Part shown: in pieces, positions 32,298 through 63,358 of the stretch
Layout of the letters: every line of letters starts with the position of its first letter
Numbering within the stretch: the first letter of the stretch is position 1
Assembly (NCBI RefSeq): GCF_003633755.1
Contig: NZ_RBIL01000001.1
Span: forward strand, 1,659,426-1,723,425
Direction: 5' to 3'
Length of the DNA stretch: 64,000 bases
Origin: Solirubrobacter pauli
GTDB lineage: Bacteria; Actinomycetota; Thermoleophilia; Solirubrobacterales; Solirubrobacteraceae
Program-made: the position numbers and the translations under genes
The notes under the pieces: model-generated
What the model saw: only the letters and a program-made list of their open reading frames with translations
Told to the model about the DNA's origin: nothing
Databases searched by the model: none

Positions 32298-32566
32298 GGA
32301 CCGTGCACCCTTCGTCGAGGTCGGCCTCCAGGGACGCTCACCTCACTGACTCCGGTCAGGCGACCCCGACACGCCCACCGGTGACCGCTTAAGGCTGCTT
32401 CCTTCCGGACCTGACCTGGTTCACGGGCCGACGTCATGCGGGACCCAACCATCGACGCCGTGGCAGCGAACGTTGGCCTGGAGCCGTGCCCCTCGAAAGG
32501 GAATTCAGCCCCGCTAGAGCGGATTGCGGATACAGGGCACCGCTACCTCCCCGCCTAGCACGGTCC
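32298..32566 (-). ncRNA. ffs: Signal recognition particle RNA, large bacterial form with Alu domain
   Basis: About 269 nt. The 5' GGACCGTGC (32566-32558) pairs with the 3' GCACGGTCC (32306-32298). Reading the minus strand, the Alu-domain segment GGGGAGGTAGCGGTGCCCTG is near the 5' end. The SRP54-binding helix 8 with AGGTCCGGAAGGAAGCAGC is centred near 32400. Layout and length match the B. subtilis scRNA rather than the roughly 100-nt 4.5S form. It binds Ffh to target membrane proteins to SecYEG. It fills the whole gap between two coding genes. Confidence 0.97.
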
Positions 32567-36486: not shown

Positions 36487-37968
36487 GTGAGCGAACAACT
36501 GGCAACCACCGAGATGCTCTCGGGAAGGCTGGAGCTGCAACCGGCAGCGCGTCGGCGGGCGACCGCCGCCGGTCGCGCCAATCGGCTGCGAACGCTCGCA
36601 CTCCTCGGTGTCGATGCCATCGCCATGCTGCTCGCCGTCATCGGCGCGCACGCCTGGAGCACGCAACCGCTGCGCGACGGCGTCGCCCTGGCCGCGGTGC
36701 TCGGCACGATGACCGCGTTCGCCGCCGCCGGCTGCTACCGGCCGCGCGCCACGCTCCCCACCCGCGATGAGCGCCGCACGCTGCTCGTGGTCCCCGCCCT
36801 GGTCGTGATGTTCGCCGCGGCCTTCGAGCTGGCGACCACGCATCCGGGCGCCGGCGACGCCGGCGTGCGCCTGTGGCTGTTGGTGGCCACGCTCGTCGGC
36901 ACCGCCCGGCTCGGCGTGGCGGGAGCGGAGGCGATCGTCCGTCGCACGGGCACGCCGACCACCCGCGCGACGCTCATCGTCGGCGCCGGGCAGGTCGGCC
37001 AGACGCTCGCGCAGCGCCTGACCGCCGAGCCGCAGTTCGGCCTGCAGCCGATCGGCTTCCTCGACAAGGAGCCGCTCGACGAGGGCGAGAGCGACCTCGA
37101 GCTGCCCGTGCTGGGCGCCTCCTGGGACCTGGAGGACGTCATCGCCTCCCACGACGTCCAGCACGTCGTCGTCGCGTTCTCGACCGCCCCGCCGTCGGTC
37201 GTCCTGGACATCGTGCGCCGCTGCTGGGCGCTCGGCGTGGACGTGATGGTCGTCCCGCGCCTGTTCGAGGTCGAGGGCCGCCGCACGCGCGTCGAGCACC
37301 TCGGCGCGCTGCCGATCGTCGCGCTCAACCCGTCCGACCCGCGCTCGTGGCAGTTCACGGTCAAGTACGCGATCGACCGCGTCATCGCCTCGATCGCGCT
37401 ACTGGCGCTCTCGCCCCTGTTCGCCGCCCTCGCGCTCGGCGTCAAGCTCAGCTCGCCCGGCCCCGTCTTCTTCAAGCAGCGCCGCGTCGGCCTCGACGGC
37501 CACGTCTTCGACATGCTCAAGTTCCGGACGATGAAGGGCTCGCCGGACACCCGCGGCGAGAACGACGCCGCCTGGGCGATGGCGGCGCTCGGCCTGGACG
37601 GCGCCGAGAAGACCGAGGGCGAGGACCGCCGGACCCGCTTCGGCACCTTCCTGCGCCGCTGCTCGCTGGACGAGCTGCCGCAGCTGCTCAATGTTGCTCG
37701 CGGCGACATGTCGCTCATCGGCCCGCGCCCGGAGCGCTCCCACTACGTGGAGCAGTTCGAGGACGCCATCTACCGCTACCCTGACCGCCACCGCGTCAAG
37801 TCGGGGCTGACCGGGTGGGCACAGGTGAACGGGCTCCGAGGAGAGACCTCATTGCAAGACCGGATCGAGTGGGACAATTTCTACATCGAGAACTGGAGTC
37901 CCCTTCTCGACCTGAAGATCGTCGCCAAGACGATCCCGGCCTTGCTCTTCGCCCGTGGCGACCGCTGA
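36487..37968 (+). CDS. Polyprenyl-phosphate sugar-1-phosphate transferase (EPS initiation)
   Basis: 493 residues. Four to five N-terminal membrane helices, a central CoA-binding-like Rossmann region (TLIVGAGQVGQTLAQRL), and a C-terminal bacterial sugar-transferase domain from about 300. That domain holds the reentrant helix, SSPGPVFFKQRRVGLDG, MLKFRTM, SLDELPQLLNV, MSLIGPRPERSHYVEQF and VKSGLTGWAQVNGLRGE. It transfers a sugar phosphate to undecaprenyl phosphate. GTG 36487 is followed by GTG 37955 of the copolymerase 14 bp before its stop, so the two genes overlap. Confidence 0.94.
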   Translation: MSEQLATTEMLSGRLELQPAARRRATAAGRANRLRTLALLGVDAIAMLLAVIGAHAWSTQPLRDGVALAAVLGTMTAFAAAGCYRPRATLPTRDERRTLLVVPALVVMFAAAFELATTHPGAGDAGVRLWLLVATLVGTARLGVAGAEAIVRRTGTPTTRATLIVGAGQVGQTLAQRLTAEPQFGLQPIGFLDKEPLDEGESDLELPVLGASWDLEDVIASHDVQHVVVAFSTAPPSVVLDIVRRCWALGVDVMVVPRLFEVEGRRTRVEHLGALPIVALNPSDPRSWQFTVKYAIDRVIASIALLALSPLFAALALGVKLSSPGPVFFKQRRVGLDGHVFDMLKFRTMKGSPDTRGENDAAWAMAALGLDGAEKTEGEDRRTRFGTFLRRCSLDELPQLLNVARGDMSLIGPRPERSHYVEQFEDAIYRYPDRHRVKSGLTGWAQVNGLRGETSLQDRIEWDNFYIENWSPLLDLKIVAKTIPALLFARGDR

Positions 37969-39397
37969 CCCTCTGACCGCTTCATCCGGACGCCGCTCGG
38001 CGGCCGACGACATCCTCGGGATCGTGTGGCGCCGCCGCTGGACGGCGCTCACCGCGTTCGTGGCCGTGCTGGCCTCCGTCGCCGCGATCACCGCCACGCT
38101 CACGCCCGCCTATGAGGCCACGGCGTACATGCTCGTGACGCCGAGCCGCCCCGTCTCCTCGGACTTCGAGCAGACGCAGATCTCCTCCGCGCTGCTGACC
38201 ACGTTCGAGCAGCTGCTGCAGACGCAGAACCTCGCCGACGAGGTCGAGCGCCGCGTCGGCAACCGCGGCGGGATGCCGCCGGAGCCCCGGGACGCGCTCA
38301 CCGTCGAGGGCGTCACGGACTCCCAGCTCCTGCGGGTGACCGCCGAGGCGGAGACGCCCGAGGCCGCCCAACTGCTCGCCAACACCTACACCCAGGTCTT
38401 CCAGGAGCGCACGCGCCAGCTCGCGTCCTCCGGCGCGTCGACCGGCAAGGCCAGCGTCGCGGAGCCCGCGACGCTGCCCAAGACCGCCGTCCGCCCGCGC
38501 CCGAAGCTCTACCTCGCGGCCGGCGCGCTGCTCGCGGCGCTCGCGGCCGTCGCCGCCGCACTCGCCGCCCACCGCCTGGACCGCCGCCTCGAGATCACCG
38601 ACTCGATGACCGACGTGCTCGGCCTGCCGATCATCGGCCGGATCCCGCAGGGCTCGCTGGCCGACCTCGAGCAGCTGCTGCAGGGCGAGCGGCTCGAGAC
38701 GCGCGACGCCCGGGCCGCGGCGGAGAGCTTCCGGCTCGTGCTCGCCAACCTCACGTTCGCGAACGTCGGCCGCCGCCCGCGCTCGGTCGCGATCGTCTCC
38801 TCGGACGAGCAGGAGGGCAAGTCGACCGTCGCGCTCAGCGTCGGCCGTGCCGCCGGCGAGCTGGACCTGCCGACCCTGCTCGTGGAGGCCGACCTGCGCC
38901 GCCCGAGCCTCGCCAGCAAGAGCGGCGCGTGGGTGAACTCGCCGCGCGGCTTCTCGAGCATGCTCGTGAGCGGGTCCTCGATGGGCGAGGCGGTCTGGCC
39001 GATCGCCGACTCGAGCATGGACCTCCTGCCCGCCGGCCCGCTGCCGCCCAACCCCGCGGCGCTGCTCGGCTCGGAGGCGCTGACCGACTTCGACCGCGAG
39101 GCGCGCTCGCGCTACGAGCTCGTCCTCTACGACACGCCGCCGCTGTCGGTGGCCGCCGACGCGTCCCTGATCGCGTCCGTCGTCGAGGGCGTCGTGCTCG
39201 TCGTGGACGCCCGCAAGACGCAGCGCCGTCTGGCCGAGCAGGCCGTCGACCAGCTGCGCCGCGCGCAGGCGACGATCTTCGGCGTGGTGGTCAACCGCGT
39301 TGATCCTGGCCCCTTCACGTCCGGCTACTACGCCGAGGGACCGCCCCAGGAGCAGACCGACGGACACCCCGGGCGCTCCGTCAAAAGTTCACGCTGA
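37955..39397 (+). CDS. Wzz/BY-kinase polysaccharide copolymerase
   Basis: 480 residues. Wzz chain-length domain with membrane helices at about 30-50 and 185-205. The cytoplasmic ATPase has Walker A SSDEQEGKST (K289), Walker A' LLVEADLRRP and Walker B-like YELVLYDTPP. It is a single-chain copolymerase/tyrosine-kinase-like protein, as in CpsCD fusions. The usual C-terminal tyrosine cluster is nearly absent (only GYYAEGPP remains), so autophosphorylation may be limited. A PHP phosphatase of the CpsB type is encoded at 51.9 kb. Confidence 0.9.
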   Translation: MATADPLTASSGRRSAADDILGIVWRRRWTALTAFVAVLASVAAITATLTPAYEATAYMLVTPSRPVSSDFEQTQISSALLTTFEQLLQTQNLADEVERRVGNRGGMPPEPRDALTVEGVTDSQLLRVTAEAETPEAAQLLANTYTQVFQERTRQLASSGASTGKASVAEPATLPKTAVRPRPKLYLAAGALLAALAAVAAALAAHRLDRRLEITDSMTDVLGLPIIGRIPQGSLADLEQLLQGERLETRDARAAAESFRLVLANLTFANVGRRPRSVAIVSSDEQEGKSTVALSVGRAAGELDLPTLLVEADLRRPSLASKSGAWVNSPRGFSSMLVSGSSMGEAVWPIADSSMDLLPAGPLPPNPAALLGSEALTDFDREARSRYELVLYDTPPLSVAADASLIASVVEGVVLVVDARKTQRRLAEQAVDQLRRAQATIFGVVVNRVDPGPFTSGYYAEGPPQEQTDGHPGRSVKSSR

Positions 39398-39404
39398 CAA
39401 CATT

Positions 39405-39439
39405 CTGGACGCTCAACGAAAGTTTGGACTCGCGTCCAG
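39405..39439. repeat. Inverted repeat CTGGACGC-N19-GCGTCCAG
   Basis: Perfect 8-bp arms at 39405-39412 and 39432-39439, starting 8 bp after the copolymerase stop and ahead of the riboswitch. It may end the upstream operon or be an operator of the riboswitch promoter; no T run follows. Confidence 0.45.
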
Positions 39440-39481
39440 CGGGCATCCTGCCGATAACAGGTAGCGTCAGCCAACTTCCCG

Positions 39482-39562
39482 CCTGCGAAAGGGCAAACCC
39501 GTCGTGAGGCGGGGACGCAAAGCCACGGGACTCCCCGCGAGTCAGCCGAGCTGCCGAACAGG
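39482..39562 (+). ncRNA. Cyclic di-GMP-I (GEMM) riboswitch
   Basis: The hallmark aptamer core is present: AGGGCAAACC (39490 on), a short P2 hairpin CCGTC-GTGA-GGCGG, then GGGACGCAAAGCC (tetraloop receptor and ligand pocket), a P3 arm, and a 3' AGCCGAGCTGCCGAA closing P1, with CCTG/CAGG at the base. It ends about 25 nt before GGGAGG, the Shine-Dalgarno of the glycosidase gene at 39599. Translation control is likelier than termination because no T run is seen. Sensing c-di-GMP would tie expression of this enzyme to the biofilm state. Confidence 0.9.
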
Positions 39563-39598
39563 ACCATTGCGTGGGCGGACGCACATCGGGAGGTCGTC

Positions 39599-41053
39599 AT
39601 GGTTCGTCCGCGGGTCAGCGCATATCTTGCTGCTTTCGTCGCCATGCTCGGAGCGTGGTTCGTAGTGCCGTCCACCGCGGCCGCCGCCACCAAGTACGCC
39701 GGATTGCAGACCCACCTGCTGTGGGCGAACGTCGACAACGCCGAGATGCAGCGCCAGCTCGACCTCGTCAAGTCGTCGGGCGCGACGCTCACGCGCGTGG
39801 ACGTCGGCTGGACGTCGATCCAGGAGAGCGGCCCGGGCGCGCTCAACGGCTACCACGTGGGCCGCCTGGATGCGGTCGTCAACGCCGCCAACGCACGCGG
39901 GATCAAGTTGCTCCTGACCTTCACCGGCTCGCCGTGCTGGGCGTCCACCGCGCCCGAGTCGATCAAGCAGGGCTGCGCGGGTGAGTGGTGGTCGCGCGGC
40001 GTCAGCGCCTACGCGCCCCGCGACCCGGCCGAGTACGCGAGCGCCATCGGCAAGCTCGCCGCCCGCTACAAGGGCAAGGTCACGGCCTGGGAGATCTGGA
40101 ACGAGCCCAACCACGAGGAGTTCTTCAAGGCCGCCGACCAGGCCACCGCGTACGCCGCGCTCGTGAAGGCCGCGTACCCCGCCGTCAAGGCCGCCGACCC
40201 GAGCACGACCGTCGTCGCCGGTTCGCTCTCCCAGTCCGACCACGCGTTCACCGCGCGCCTCTACCAGCTCGGCGTCAAGGGCTTCTTCGACGCGTTCTCG
40301 ATCCACCCGTACAGCGACGACTACTCGCCGCTGGACACGCGCGCGGGCCAGGACCCCCGCTACTCGTTCATCCGCGGCGTGCCCGCCGTGCGCGACGTGA
40401 TGCTGGCCAATGGCGACAACAAGCCGCTGTGGCTGACCGAGGCCGGATTCAGCACCTCCCCGATCCGCGCCACCGAGCGCTGGCGCAACGGCGTCTCGGA
40501 GGAGACGCAGGCGCTCTACCTCAAGCAGCAGGTCGAGCAGGTCGCCAAGTGGCCGTACGTGGCCGCGACCGTCTGGTTCAAGCTCAAGGACACCAGCGGC
40601 GACGTCAACGACCTCTACTCGAACTGTGGCCTGAGGAGGTGGGACGGGTCGGCCAAGCCTGCTTGGGCGGCGTTTCAGAACAGCATGGCGATCCTCGAAG
40701 ACGGCGCAGAGCAGCCGGGTGAAGGCCCGTTCGAGCCGGAAGTTCCGCAGCCGCCGCTGACGCCGGCCCCGACCCCGGTGCCGCCGGCGCCGACGCCGGT
40801 CCCGCCCGCGCCGACCCCGGTCCCGCCCGCGCCGACCCCGGTCCCGCCCGCGCCACCGGTCACGCCGGTGCCGCCCGCCCCGACGCCGACTCCGGCGCCG
40901 CCCACCAAGCCGTCCGTGCCCAAGAAGCCGACGACGAAGGCGCCCAAGCGCAGCAAGCCGGTGTCCGCGAAGATCTCGCGCGCGAAGGCGAAGAAGCTCA
41001 AGGCGCGCACGGCCGCCAAGCGCAAGGCCGCGGCCAGGCGCGCCGCTCGTTAG
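39599..41053 (+). CDS. Secreted glycoside hydrolase (clan GH-A, GH39/PslG-like) under riboswitch control
   Basis: 484 residues. Signal peptide 1-29. TIM-barrel catalytic domain to about 365, with the acid/base Glu169 in WEIWNEPN and the probable nucleophile Glu281 in WLTEAGFS. It is followed by a Pro-rich linker of four PVPPAPT units and a Lys/Arg/Ala-rich tail that may bind polymer or wall. Such enzymes hydrolyse or trim exopolysaccharide, as PslG does in Pseudomonas. GGGAGG lies 5 nt before ATG 39599. The c-di-GMP riboswitch upstream is the control element. Confidence 0.9.
   Translation: MVRPRVSAYLAAFVAMLGAWFVVPSTAAAATKYAGLQTHLLWANVDNAEMQRQLDLVKSSGATLTRVDVGWTSIQESGPGALNGYHVGRLDAVVNAANARGIKLLLTFTGSPCWASTAPESIKQGCAGEWWSRGVSAYAPRDPAEYASAIGKLAARYKGKVTAWEIWNEPNHEEFFKAADQATAYAALVKAAYPAVKAADPSTTVVAGSLSQSDHAFTARLYQLGVKGFFDAFSIHPYSDDYSPLDTRAGQDPRYSFIRGVPAVRDVMLANGDNKPLWLTEAGFSTSPIRATERWRNGVSEETQALYLKQQVEQVAKWPYVAATVWFKLKDTSGDVNDLYSNCGLRRWDGSAKPAWAAFQNSMAILEDGAEQPGEGPFEPEVPQPPLTPAPTPVPPAPTPVPPAPTPVPPAPTPVPPAPPVTPVPPAPTPTPAPPTKPSVPKKPTTKAPKRSKPVSAKISRAKAKKLKARTAAKRKAAARRAAR
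40775..40858 (+). repeat. 21-bp tandem repeats coding the PVPPAPT linker
   Basis: Four 21-bp units; those at 40796-40816 and 40817-40837 are identical. They encode the Pro-rich spacer of the glycosidase. Confidence 0.85.
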
Positions 41054-41065
41054 CGGCGCGCCACC

Positions 41066-41078: not shown

Positions 41079-42449
41079 GTGACCGTCGGCGCTCGCGTCC
41101 TGCTCCTCGGCGCCATCGCCGCATGCTGCTTCGCCGCCGCGGCGCAGGTGCTCGTGATGGCCCAGCTCGGGGCGAGCGCCGGGTTCGTGCTGCCGATCGC
41201 GGTCGTCGTCGGCGTGGCGGTCGTGCGCCGGCCGGTGATCGGCGTGCAGCTCGCCGTGCTGGCCGTGCCGCTCGAGTACTTCTCGATCAAGCTCGGCGCG
41301 TTCGGTGGCCTGAGCGTCTCGGAGCTGCTGCTGCTGCTGACCGCCGCCGCCGTGCTGCTCGAGTGGGCGGTGTCCGGCCACGTGCCGGCGGTGCCGCCCG
41401 CGCTGCGCGCGCTCCTGCTGATCTGCGTCGTGATCGCGTTCGGCTTCACGATCGCGCGCGACACCGTGATCGTCACGAAGGTGCTGCTGATGTGGAGCGC
41501 GTTCACGATCGTCGGCGTCCAGCTCGCCGCGTCGCCCGTCGAGGACGTGCGGCGGACGATGATCTGCATGGCCCTCGCCGGCGGGCTCGTCTCGCTGATC
41601 GCGATCGCGACCGGCGGGACCCAGACGCTCGTGGGCGGCGGCGAGATCGTCACCAACCGCGCGCAGGGCAGCTTCGCCCAGCCGAACGTGCTCGGCTTCT
41701 TCCTGGTCATGACGATCCCGATCGCGATCGTGCTCGCCACCCAGGGGCCGCTGTGGCTGCGGGGCGTGATGACCGCCGCGGCCGCGGCCAGCGTCATGGG
41801 CGTGATGCTGTCGCTCTCGCGCACGAGCCTGCTCGGCACGGCGCTGGGCTTCGTCGTGCTGCTGCTGTGGCCGCCGTTCCGCAAGCTGGCGTTCGCCGCG
41901 CTCGCGGTGCTCGTGGTGTTCTCGCTCGTGAACGCGAAGGCGCTGTCGCAGTCGCACCAGATCGAGGTCGTGACGTCGCGGCTGGGCACGCTCGGCCAGG
42001 CGAGCACCGTGTCCGACGACCCGCGGCTGGAGATCTACCGCACCGTGCCGGGCGTGTTCGCCGAGCATCCGTGGCTGGGCGTCGGCGAGGGCAACTTCTC
42101 GCTGATCTCGCGCGAGTACGGGCTGCGCGACCTGGACGGGATGCCGTTCGACCATGCGCACAACGTCGTGCTGACGTTCGCGGCCGAGCTCGGCGCTCCC
42201 GGGCTGCTCGCGCTGGGCTGGCTCTTCTTCGCGGTCGGGCGGCTGGTGGTCGGCGCGGCGCGCACGCGCGGGGACCCGGTGGTCGGCGCGCTCGGGCTGG
42301 CGTTGAGCGCGGCGATGGTCGGCAACGTCCTGACCAGCCTCGGCGACTATCCGCCGCGCACGAACGTGATCGCGGCGATGTTCATCGCGCAGGTCGGGCT
42401 CCTGGCGGCGCTCCAGCGGCGCGCTCAGGCGCCCATGCGCTCGGCGTAG
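41079..42449 (+). CDS. O-antigen ligase/polymerase-family membrane protein (second Wzy-like)
   Basis: 456 residues, about 11-12 membrane helices. Wzy_C-type features: GSFAQPNVLGFFLVM, MLSLSRTSLLGTALGF and, after the large outer loop, RLEIYRTVPGVFAEHPWLGVGEGNFS (in pieces) and DHAHNVVLTFAAELGAPGLL. It likely polymerises EPS repeat units or ligates chains to an acceptor. Two such proteins in one locus suggest one polymerase and one ligase; which is which cannot be said. It overlaps the convergent glycosyltransferase by 25 bp. Confidence 0.88.
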   Translation: MTVGARVLLLGAIAACCFAAAAQVLVMAQLGASAGFVLPIAVVVGVAVVRRPVIGVQLAVLAVPLEYFSIKLGAFGGLSVSELLLLLTAAAVLLEWAVSGHVPAVPPALRALLLICVVIAFGFTIARDTVIVTKVLLMWSAFTIVGVQLAASPVEDVRRTMICMALAGGLVSLIAIATGGTQTLVGGGEIVTNRAQGSFAQPNVLGFFLVMTIPIAIVLATQGPLWLRGVMTAAAAASVMGVMLSLSRTSLLGTALGFVVLLLWPPFRKLAFAALAVLVVFSLVNAKALSQSHQIEVVTSRLGTLGQASTVSDDPRLEIYRTVPGVFAEHPWLGVGEGNFSLISREYGLRDLDGMPFDHAHNVVLTFAAELGAPGLLALGWLFFAVGRLVVGAARTRGDPVVGALGLALSAAMVGNVLTSLGDYPPRTNVIAAMFIAQVGLLAALQRRAQAPMRSA

Positions 42450-63284: not shown

Positions 63285-63358
63285 GGGCGATTAGCTCAGT
63301 TGGTTAGAGCGCACGCTTCACACGCGTGAGGTCACTGGTTCGAGTCCAGTATCGCCCA
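63285..63358 (+). tRNA. tRNA-Val (anticodon CAC)
   Basis: 74 nt. Acceptor GGGCGAT / ATCGCCC, D arm CTCAGTTGGTTAGAGC, anticodon stem CACGC / GCGTG with loop TTCACAC giving anticodon CAC (Val, codon GTG), T arm with GGTTCGAGTCC and discriminator A. CCA is not encoded. A terminator follows. Confidence 0.97.

What the first reader, a model, noticed from the sequence alone, without database searches (positions are those of the whole stretch)
39475..41053. c-di-GMP-I riboswitch in front of a PslG-like glycosidase inside an EPS locus
The GEMM core (AGGGCAAACC, GGGACGCAAAGCC, 3' closing strand) is intact, and the gene behind it is a secreted GH-A enzyme with Glu169/Glu281 in the midst of polysaccharide genes. 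This links a second messenger directly to an EPS-trimming enzyme, rather than to EPS synthesis. PslG-type hydrolases have dual roles in synthesis and dispersal. As a riboswitch-controlled matrix enzyme in this lineage it may be undescribed.
Basis: partly seen in the sequence, partly recalled or inferred. Interest (0 to 1): 0.65.

Follow-up and report, generated by a model that had tools for sequence, protein, structure and literature searches.

The report
c-di-GMP riboswitch before PslG-like glycosidase
A soil bacterium of the genus Solirubrobacter puts a secreted, probably slime-cutting enzyme behind an RNA switch for the messenger c-di-GMP, and the same messenger may also control the promoter, so one signal may be read twice on a single message.

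Summary
A complete c-di-GMP-I aptamer lies at 39482-39558 (RF01051 65.1 bits, cut-off 35), 40 nt before a secreted GH-A enzyme with Glu169/Glu281 whose nearest solved relatives are PslG and a GH39 enzyme. Rfam's clan winner is the variant c-di-GMP-I-GGC, but the window has A where that model has G; G20/A47/C92 is canonical. The pairing is kept in 4 of 4 Solirubrobacter genomes with the orthologue and recurs before two distant homologues among 80 loci scanned. New here: the aptamer follows a sigma28 (FliA/WhiG)-like promoter, a regulon-wide feature. 45 of 142 Solirubrobacterales riboswitches have such a site just upstream, against 4 and 2 of 142 in control windows; the window's own site is partial (9 of 12, -10 perfect, no -35). 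The genome encodes a WhiG-like sigma and one single-motif RsiG, the c-di-GMP-dependent anti-sigma. Most likely c-di-GMP acts twice on one message. Whether binding turns translation off (my lean) or on is not settled. A new variant of a known kind.

The parts
39405..39439 (+). Inverted repeat CTGGACGC / GCGTCCAG (39405-39412, 39432-39439) upstream of the promoter -10; contains the GTCCA element
   Evidence: Sequence; the CTGGAC...GTCCAG core is kept in both orthologous loci; GTCCA is enriched 50-95 nt before aptamers: 46 of 142 vs 14 and 2 of 142 further upstream. Function unknown.
39431..39457 (+). sigma28 (FliA/WhiG)-like promoter candidate: -10 GCCGATAA at 39450-39457; position of -35 (39431-39434) reads CGCG, not TAAA/TAAG
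   Evidence: 9 of 12 consensus positions, -10 ends 24 nt before the aptamer. -10 identical in S. sp. CPCC 204708, one change (GTCGATAA) in S. phytolaccae.
39475..39481 (+). Flank CUUCCCG, complementary to the Shine-Dalgarno segment CGGGAGG 39587-39593 (candidate anti-SD continuing P1)
   Evidence: CUUCCCG is the same in three orthologous leaders; the SD side is CGGGAGG in two and CGGGAGU in CPCC 204708. Duplex -12.9, -11.2 and -9.3 kcal/mol. No covariation, so weak evidence.
39482..39558 (+). c-di-GMP-I riboswitch aptamer (P1 with CCUG/CAGG extension 39482-39485 / 39559-39562, P2, P3)
   Evidence: RF01051 65.1 bits; RF03167 63.7 bits; covariation in P2 and P3.
39588..39593 (+). Shine-Dalgarno GGGAGG of the hydrolase gene
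   Evidence: Sequence, 5 nt before ATG 39599.
39599..41053 (+). Secreted PslG/GH39-like glycosidase, Glu169/Glu281, Pro-rich linker and basic C-terminal helix
   Evidence: Pfam Cellulase 1.8e-14, Glyco_hydro_39 9.6e-9; PDB phmmer PslG 3.4e-19; AlphaFold model, Foldseek PslG 3.2e-23 and VIA Z 34. Secretion judged by eye from the N-terminus.
37955..39397 (+). Wzz-like chain-length gene just upstream
   Evidence: Pfam Wzz 2.8e-7; synteny in L035 and L036.
36487..37968 (+). Initiating sugar transferase
   Evidence: Pfam Bac_transf 5e-61; synteny.
41079..42449 (+). Wzy/O-antigen-ligase-like gene 25 nt after the hydrolase stop, possibly co-regulated
   Evidence: Pfam Wzy_C 3.9e-23; synteny and the same 25-nt gap in L035 and L036.

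Best explanation
A canonical c-di-GMP-I riboswitch controls, most likely at translation, a secreted PslG-type glycosidase that trims or proof-reads the exopolysaccharide made by the surrounding genes. The message starts at a sigma28-type promoter read by WhiG, and WhiG is held by the anti-sigma RsiG when c-di-GMP is high. The same messenger would thus act twice on one message: on initiation through RsiG-WhiG and on the mRNA through the aptamer. I lean to an OFF switch: ligand-closed P1 stacks on a flank that pairs with the Shine-Dalgarno, so the enzyme would be made when c-di-GMP is low (dispersal, motile state). Shown: aptamer, ligand residues, predicted enzyme fold and catalytic residues, conserved synteny, regulon-wide promoter enrichment, presence of a WhiG-like sigma and RsiG. 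Inferred: ligand binding here, use of this promoter by WhiG, RsiG control, switch direction, substrate. My separate estimates: riboswitch real 0.98; ligand c-di-GMP 0.93; it controls this gene 0.9; sigma28-type promoter at the window copy 0.65; RsiG-WhiG control 0.55; OFF direction 0.58.
For: Aptamer over cut-off with both models; canonical G20/A47/C92. Riboswitch 40-43 nt before the orthologous gene in 4 of 4 genus genomes that have it, of 7 searched; also directly before two distant homologues, L044 and L046. Enzyme: PslG and GH39 5jvk are the nearest solved structures; E169/E281 invariant in a 15-row alignment. Promoter: 45 of 142 riboswitches have a site of 9 or more of 12 within 5-45 nt, against 4 of 142 (upstream window) and 2 of 142 (reverse strand); 10 or more: 22, 0, 0. 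With 84 of 142 loci aligned on the -10 alone, a -35-like signal (T at -20, AA at -18/-17, G at -16) appears at fixed spacing. TAAG-N15-GCCGAT occurs 5 times in the genome and 2 are riboswitch promoters; the reversed pattern occurs 0 times. In this genome 4 of 5 riboswitches score 9 or more (12, 11, 10, 9; one 6). Two sigmas over the FliA_WhiG cut-off; one RsiG, 108 aa, single E(X)3S(X)2R(X)3H(X)3D motif. RsiG is in 99 of 106 riboswitch genomes and 56 of 95 others. 21 of the 45 sites lie in genomes where no FlhA was found, 10 of these in genomes I marked as at least 90% complete, so flagellar FliA alone does not explain them. RsiG-(c-di-GMP)-WhiG control of pili in Rubrobacter: PMC8325347 (abstract, sections 5 and 15, passages).
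Against: The window's own promoter lacks a recognisable -35. The hold-out outside the order is weaker: 9 or more in 9 of 28 proximal, 4 of 28 upstream, 0 of 28 reverse; 10 or more 3, 2, 0. L044 has no such site (7 of 12), and no RsiG was found in the genome of L046. Sites are somewhat commoner in genomes with FlhA (24 of 62 loci) than without (21 of 80), which leaves room for FliA. Permutation tests gave no 5'-flank/SD pairing beyond chance and only scattered weak signals (9 of 300 for short leaders). The unconstrained fold (-70.6 kcal/mol) beats aptamer-constrained folds (about -53), and the SD-unpaired probability moves only from 0.70 (free) to 0.56 (aptamer core) and 0.37 (with extended P1). 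The RsiG association is not corrected for phylogeny or completeness. No expression data.
Confidence: 0.52

Rival explanations
1. Riboswitch only. The aptamer controls the hydrolase, but the gene is transcribed from a housekeeping promoter or by read-through from the Wzz operon; GCCGATAA at 39450 is fortuitous here.
For: No -35 at the window copy (9 of 12). The Wzz-like gene ends at 39397, 84 nt before the aptamer, so read-through is possible.
Against: The -10 is exact in two and one base off in the third of three orthologous leaders; the same arrangement is enriched across the order and scores 11-12 at two of the other four riboswitches in this genome.
Confidence: 0.28
2. Opposing (incoherent) control. 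RsiG-WhiG shuts transcription at high c-di-GMP while the riboswitch turns translation ON, giving a pulse or a band-pass response.
For: Precedent: in Vibrio cholerae c-di-GMP acts on the promoter and the riboswitch of gbpA and tfoY, and the two controls act in opposing directions (passage of PMC6200980). A P0 helix 39464-39472/39574-39582 would cross the anti-SD pairing (sequence); with it imposed the start codon is open (0.94).
Against: Constrained folds make the SD less, not more, accessible with the aptamer formed: 0.70 free, 0.56 core, 0.37 with extended P1, and 0.29 even with P0. Class I switches of C. difficile are reported as OFF (abstract passage of PMC6200980). I lowered this from an earlier 0.36 after rechecking the P0 value.
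Confidence: 0.33
3. The promoter is read by the flagellar sigma FliA (C1:2360019), not by RsiG-controlled WhiG; the regulon is flagellar-linked.
For: This genome has a second FliA/WhiG sigma next to genes that look flagellar by eye, 26 kb from an FlhA gene. Sites are somewhat commoner in FlhA-bearing genomes, 24 of 62 loci vs 21 of 80.
Against: 21 of 45 strong sites are in genomes where no FlhA was found. Pilins have more than half of the sites (24 of 45, among 37 pilin loci), and pilus genes are WhiG targets in Rubrobacter (PMC8325347).
Confidence: 0.2
4. The aptamer belongs to the c-di-GMP-I-GGC variant class and senses another ligand.
For: RF03167 is the clan winner by E-value and matches the five riboswitches of the genome, 4 of 5 over its cut-off.
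Against: The RF03167 consensus has G where the window has A (alignment); G20/A47/C92 in 141 of 144; RF01051 gives the higher bit score at this place.
Confidence: 0.04

Closest known systems
c-di-GMP-I (GEMM-I) riboswitches, Rfam RF01051
   Same: Aptamer fold, conserved core, canonical ligand residues
   Different: Here in Thermoleophilia, before a PslG-type hydrolase and behind a sigma28-like promoter
Rubrobacter radiotolerans (RsiG)2-(c-di-GMP)2-WhiG switch (PMC8325347)
   Same: Single-motif RsiG, WhiG-type sigma, -35 TAAA / -10 GCCGATAA promoters, type IV pilus genes
   Different: The word riboswitch does not occur in the main text of that paper as held; here the predicted targets also carry aptamers and include glycosidases, proteases and CAP proteins
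Vibrio cholerae Vc1 (gbpA) and Vc2 (tfoY)
   Same: c-di-GMP acts on both promoter and riboswitch of one gene (passage of PMC6200980)
   Different: Another promoter mechanism (recalled: not a sigma/anti-sigma pair); two genes in that passage, not a regulon
Clostridioides difficile class I riboswitches (flgB operon, zmpI)
   Same: Class I aptamers on surface and secreted factors, including a metalloprotease that cleaves surface proteins; a SigD regulon in the same organism (passages of PMC6200980)
   Different: OFF switches, recalled as acting on transcription; no RsiG (PMC8325347 found RsiG only in Actinobacteria); no glycosidase among the targets in the passages seen
Pseudomonas aeruginosa PslG
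   Same: GH-A fold, catalytic Glu pair; best solved match; encoded in an EPS locus (recalled)
   Different: About 23% identity over the aligned region; Pro-rich linker and basic tail here; no riboswitch reported for pslG (recalled)

Membership tests
c-di-GMP-I riboswitch (RF01051) | Covariance-model score over the gathering cut-off | tested here: met
   65.1 vs 35 bits
c-di-GMP-I riboswitch (RF01051) | G20, A47, C92 at the ligand site (numbering recalled) | tested here: met
   39492 G, 39519 A, 39554 C
c-di-GMP-I riboswitch (RF01051) | Binds c-di-GMP | not testable with these tools
   Needs in-line probing
c-di-GMP-I-GGC variant (RF03167) | Score over gathering cut-off | tested here: met
   63.7 vs 59 bits
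c-di-GMP-I-GGC variant (RF03167) | G at position 47, the residue taken to name the variant (recalled; the model consensus shows it) | tested here: not met
   Window has A; see alignment
PslG / GH39 glycosidase | GH-A barrel with Glu acid/base in WNEPN and Glu nucleophile in TE | tested here: met
   E169, E281, invariant in 15 rows; AlphaFold barrel, VIA Z 34 to PslG
PslG / GH39 glycosidase | Belongs to PslG rather than to its GH39 neighbour | tested here: inconclusive
   PslG Z 34.2/34.1/34.0 and 5jvk Z 33.6 are tied
PslG / GH39 glycosidase | Cleaves the EPS of its own locus | not testable with these tools
   No substrate data
sigma28 (FliA/WhiG) promoter | -10 GCCGATAA | tested here: met
   39450-39457
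sigma28 (FliA/WhiG) promoter | -35 TAAA/TAAG at about 15 nt from the -10 | tested here: not met
   CGCG at 39431-39434; met at the genome's pilin (12/12) and at one CAP gene (TAAG, 11/12)
[quoted passage not shown]
   PF22802 73.9 bits, cut-off 27; motif EQEVSYRRRILHGKID
[quoted passage not shown]
   C2:2063512, 290.3 bits vs cut-off 189.6; the model does not separate WhiG from FliA
[quoted passage not shown]
   Needs 5'-end mapping and a whiG mutant

The most novel reading that the evidence does not exclude
In class Thermoleophilia c-di-GMP governs a surface regulon (type IV pilins, secreted glycosidases of at least three families, subtilases, CAP proteins, some GGDEF proteins) by two tandem sensors on the same message: the RsiG-WhiG sigma switch at the promoter and a GEMM-I riboswitch in the leader. 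Polysaccharide hydrolases of different families were recruited repeatedly behind the same aptamer, so matrix remodelling is a direct output of the messenger.
Probability: 0.42. Interest if true: 0.76.

Novelty: new variant of a known kind. Interest (0 to 1): 0.62.

Why it matters
c-di-GMP riboswitches are best studied in Vibrio and Clostridioides; in Actinomycetota c-di-GMP is known mainly through BldD and RsiG-WhiG (recalled, and PMC8325347). If right, this joins the two receptor types on single transcripts in a large, little-studied soil lineage, gives RsiG-WhiG a set of predicted targets readable from sequence (promoter followed by aptamer), and makes matrix hydrolases a direct c-di-GMP output. 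Whether the two layers agree or oppose each other can be tested with one reporter swap.

Tried and rejected
Start-codon sequestration (GGACCAU 39561-39567 with AUGGUUC at the start codon): rejected, because the orthologues start with TTG and lose the pairing. GGC variant ligand: rejected. A general rule that P1 extension hides the Shine-Dalgarno: permuting 5' flanks among loci gave no excess (48 short leaders: observed -8.24, permuted -8.23 kcal/mol; the other three groups likewise), and P1-flank complementarity was patchy. In one search, of 11 comparisons the lowest counts of permutations reaching the observed value were 6 of 300 (pilin 5' flank with leader), 8 of 300 (17-35-nt leaders, flank with aptamer 3' end) and 9 of 300 (short leaders, flank with SD region), without correction for 11 tests. 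Conserved pilin-leader pairing GCCAG/CTGGC: 25 of 30 have an exact own 5-mer complement, but permuted leaders give 21.0 on average (75 of 2000 reach it), and the helix-score and 6-mer versions show nothing (449 and 606 of 2000), so it is conserved and hardly covarying; undecided. The last two states (labelled antiSD) used a register shifted by one base and are discarded; the extended-P1 state of that call found the anti-SD pairing unaided. Terminator after the hydrolase: a perfect 11-bp hairpin at 41037-41062 exists in the window but not in L035 or L036. Riboswitch near L037 (55% identical enzyme): none found. Three weak model hits among the 80 loci (L109 E 0.0086, L113 0.4, L075 0.71) were set aside. 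VIA-align showed no family clearly above the PslG/5jvk tie. One search was of no use: 'GEMM' matched other words.

Limits of the counts: one search listed only its best 150 matches, so the 142-locus set is biased to strong aptamers; 150 became 144 after removing duplicates over the aptamer and 60 nt before it, and 142 after requiring 200 nt upstream. One search kept the best 80 of at least 438 relatives, so the 80 loci are the nearest ones. Genes behind the aptamers were picked by a heuristic and some picks are doubtful (for example L182, L203, L205, L213, L239, L251); one of 144 had no ORF. The pilin flag was a motif in that pick. Ligand residues were read by string rules, not from an alignment. 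The yardstick TAAG-N15-GCCGATAA was fixed before one search placed the conserved T one base further upstream, so it undercounts some sites. Identity of the genome samples is assumed from equal handles; the genomes counted as at least 90% complete were typed by hand from the tables. L035 and L036 are taken as G147 and G179 from equal contig lengths.
Full report
Check of the observation. The window belongs to a Solirubrobacter-like genome (7.1 Mb, four contigs); the closest named homologues of the enzyme are in S. phytolaccae (78%) and Solirubrobacter sp. CPCC 204708 (77%). cmscan reports one riboswitch, 39484-39559 +, as c-di-GMP-I-GGC at 63.7 bits. The parent model RF01051 scores 65.1 bits at the same place, one of five matches in the genome, while 14 control genomes give none. 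The GGC label misleads: its consensus has GCGAAG where the window has GCAAAG (alignment), and by Vc2 numbering (recalled) the ligand residues are G20, A47, C92, as in 141 of 144 distinct aptamers of the order. Consensus folding of 54 aptamers gives 18 pairs, 15 with changes on both sides in at least one sequence. So the aptamer is real and canonical.

The enzyme. ORF 39599-41053 has 484 aa, an N-terminal hydrophobic segment ending AAAATK (by eye a signal peptide), E169 in WNEPN and E281 in TEAG, a low-confidence proline-rich linker and a basic C-terminal helix. Pfam gives Cellulase and Glyco_hydro_39; phmmer against the PDB gives PslG first (3.4e-19). An AlphaFold model (mean pLDDT 81.5, 281 of 484 residues at 90 or more) matches PslG best in Foldseek (3.2e-23) and by VIA-align (Z 34.2, 34.1, 34.0), tied with GH39 5jvk (33.6) and above the next GH39 entry (28.9). 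PslG-type is a fair name; the substrate is unknown.

The locus. Initiating sugar transferase, Wzz-like gene, riboswitch, hydrolase, Wzy-like gene. The same order holds in S. phytolaccae and CPCC 204708. Of 7 genus genomes searched, 4 have the orthologue (73% identity or more) and all 4 have the aptamer 40-43 nt before it; two of these, G117 and G179, are identical over the aptamer and the 60 nt before it, so there are three distinct versions.

Recurrence. I scanned all 80 homologue loci kept with a model built from 54 aptamers. Four strong hits came out, all on the gene's strand just upstream of it: the two Solirubrobacter loci (versions of which were in the model) and two loci of distant Actinomycetota MAGs, L044 (69.9 bits) and L046 (48.4 bits), whose enzymes are 34% identical. 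Rfam confirms both with RF01051. In the other 76 loci no strong hit was found. Glycosidases of other families follow the same aptamer elsewhere: 10 GHL15 among 143 genes in the order, and GH26 in 7, GHL15 in 1 and subtilase in 2 of the 10 genes I chose to scan, by their N-termini, from 28 loci of other families of the class. GH26 and GH39 are both clan GH-A (recalled), so these families are distinct but not all unrelated.

The regulon. RF01051 matches 106 of 201 genomes of the order and 70 of 149 of a class sample. Of 143 genes behind order aptamers, 38 have the type IV pilin N-methylation motif, 13 CAP, 10 GHL15, 5 subtilase and 4 GGDEF domains. In this genome the five targets are a type IV pilin, two CAP (YkwD-like) proteins, a subtilase-like protease and the window enzyme (the NCBIfam matches of the CAP proteins and the protease are below those models' cut-offs).

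The promoter. Upstream of the aptamers GCCGATAA stands out, the -10 of FliA/WhiG promoters. With TAAG-N15-GCCGATAA as yardstick (12 fixed positions), a site of 9 or more ends 5-45 nt before the aptamer in 45 of 142 loci, against 4 of 142 in an equal window further upstream and 2 of 142 on the reverse strand; at 10 or more the counts are 22, 0 and 0. In an earlier, wider scan (200 nt) 57 of 142 reached 9, against 18 of 548 coding stretches and 41 of 710 shuffles. When 84 loci were aligned on the -10 alone, a -35-like signal (T at -20, AA at -18/-17, G at -16) appeared at fixed spacing, which the alignment did not impose. Genome-wide, TAAG-N15-GCCGAT occurs 5 times and two of these precede riboswitches. 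Outside the order the signal is weaker: 9 of 28 against 4 of 28 and 0 of 28 at 9 or more, 3, 2 and 0 at 10 or more. The window's own site has a perfect -10 but no -35 (9 of 12). The -10 is exact in CPCC 204708 and has one change in S. phytolaccae. The distant L046 has 10 of 12; L044 has no site (7 of 12).

Who reads it. Two sigma factors pass the FliA_WhiG cut-off: C2:2063512 (290 bits) and C1:2360019 (215 bits); the second lies among genes that look flagellar by eye, 26 kb from FlhA. One RsiG is present (PF22802, 73.9 bits), 108 aa, with a single c-di-GMP motif, the form that PMC8325347 describes for Thermoleophilia and Rubrobacter (abstract, sections 5 and 15 and passages read). RsiG is in 99 of 106 riboswitch genomes and in 56 of 95 others (Fisher p 3.6e-9, not corrected for descent or completeness). 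21 of the 45 strong sites are in genomes without a FlhA match, so a flagellar sigma alone does not explain them; yet sites are somewhat commoner with FlhA (24 of 62 loci) than without (21 of 80), so FliA is not excluded. The genome of L044 has RsiG (two PF22802 matches in one frame); that of L046 shows none. In Rubrobacter this switch is proposed to direct pilus genes and c-di-GMP turnover genes (PMC8325347), and both kinds of gene occur behind the aptamers here.

How it works. Established biology: RsiG armed with c-di-GMP holds WhiG (PMC8325347). If WhiG reads this promoter, high c-di-GMP lowers transcription. For the RNA layer, platforms in Actinomycetota tend to act on translation (passage of PMC12452182), and I saw no terminator by eye in the 40-nt leader. 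Flank 39475-39481 (CUUCCCG) can pair with the Shine-Dalgarno segment and would stack on the extended P1; with the aptamer and extended P1 imposed, the SD-unpaired probability falls from 0.70 to 0.37. That favours OFF, as for class I switches in C. difficile (passages of PMC6200980). But the free fold is far more stable in the calculation, and permutation tests show no shared rule. A competing P0 helix can be drawn; imposing it leaves the SD at 0.29 and the start codon at 0.94 unpaired, which does not decide. Dual control by promoter and riboswitch has a precedent in V. cholerae, there in opposing directions (passage of PMC6200980).

Novelty. Ten searches of the paper library were made. None of the listings, abstracts or passages I saw reports c-di-GMP riboswitches in Thermoleophilia, a riboswitch behind an RsiG-WhiG promoter, or one before a PslG-type enzyme; 'c-di-GMP riboswitch' with 'glycoside hydrolase' returned 0 papers, and of the 11 papers with 'WhiG' and 'riboswitch' I looked at passages of one review (PMC10519070), the rest as listing only. 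The library holds only open-licence papers, and the PNAS 2017 paper on variant riboswitches was not held. The parts are known; the combination and its recurrence across a class look new.

Noticed in passing
39405-39439, and 50-95 nt before many aptamers: A GTCCA element (46 of 142 vs 14 and 2 of 142 further upstream), here as a perfect CTGGACGC/GCGTCCAG inverted repeat; it may be an activator site.
   Followed up: partly
L004 / G000:C2:402786 and 407195: The CAP gene behind another riboswitch has a weakly PslG-related ORF (34% over part) 4.4 kb downstream on the same strand; similar spacing in G117, G179 and G194. Two Pfam scans of guessed frames found nothing.
   Followed up: partly
Leaders of pilin genes, for example L005, L186, L264: GCCAG just before the aptamer and CTGGC upstream of the Shine-Dalgarno are complementary in most of 30 pilin leaders listed, in a few with changed bases on both sides.
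   Followed up: partly
G127:C1:88066, G138:C1:1637323, G001:C81:68163: Three aptamers of 144 depart at the ligand residues (A20, C20, T92, by string rules); A20 is the change seen in cGAMP-type GEMM RNAs (recalled).
   Followed up: no
G164, G030, G079, G113 (L207, L225, L184, L242): Neighbouring duplicated genes, pilins in three of the four genomes, each with its own riboswitch.
   Followed up: no
Rfam RF03167: The GGC variant model wins clan competition on the canonical A47 aptamers of this locus and its two orthologues, so automatic annotation may mislabel them.
   Followed up: partly
41037-41062: Perfect 11-bp hairpin across the hydrolase stop codon (-23.9 kcal/mol), not conserved in the orthologous loci.
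   Followed up: yes
Protein residues 461-483: Lys/Arg-rich C-terminal helix after a proline-rich linker, perhaps for binding acidic polysaccharide or the wall; L001's CAP protein is also Lys-rich.
   Followed up: no
32301-32563 (-) and 63285-63358 (+): Large bacterial SRP RNA and a tRNA; ordinary.
   Followed up: no
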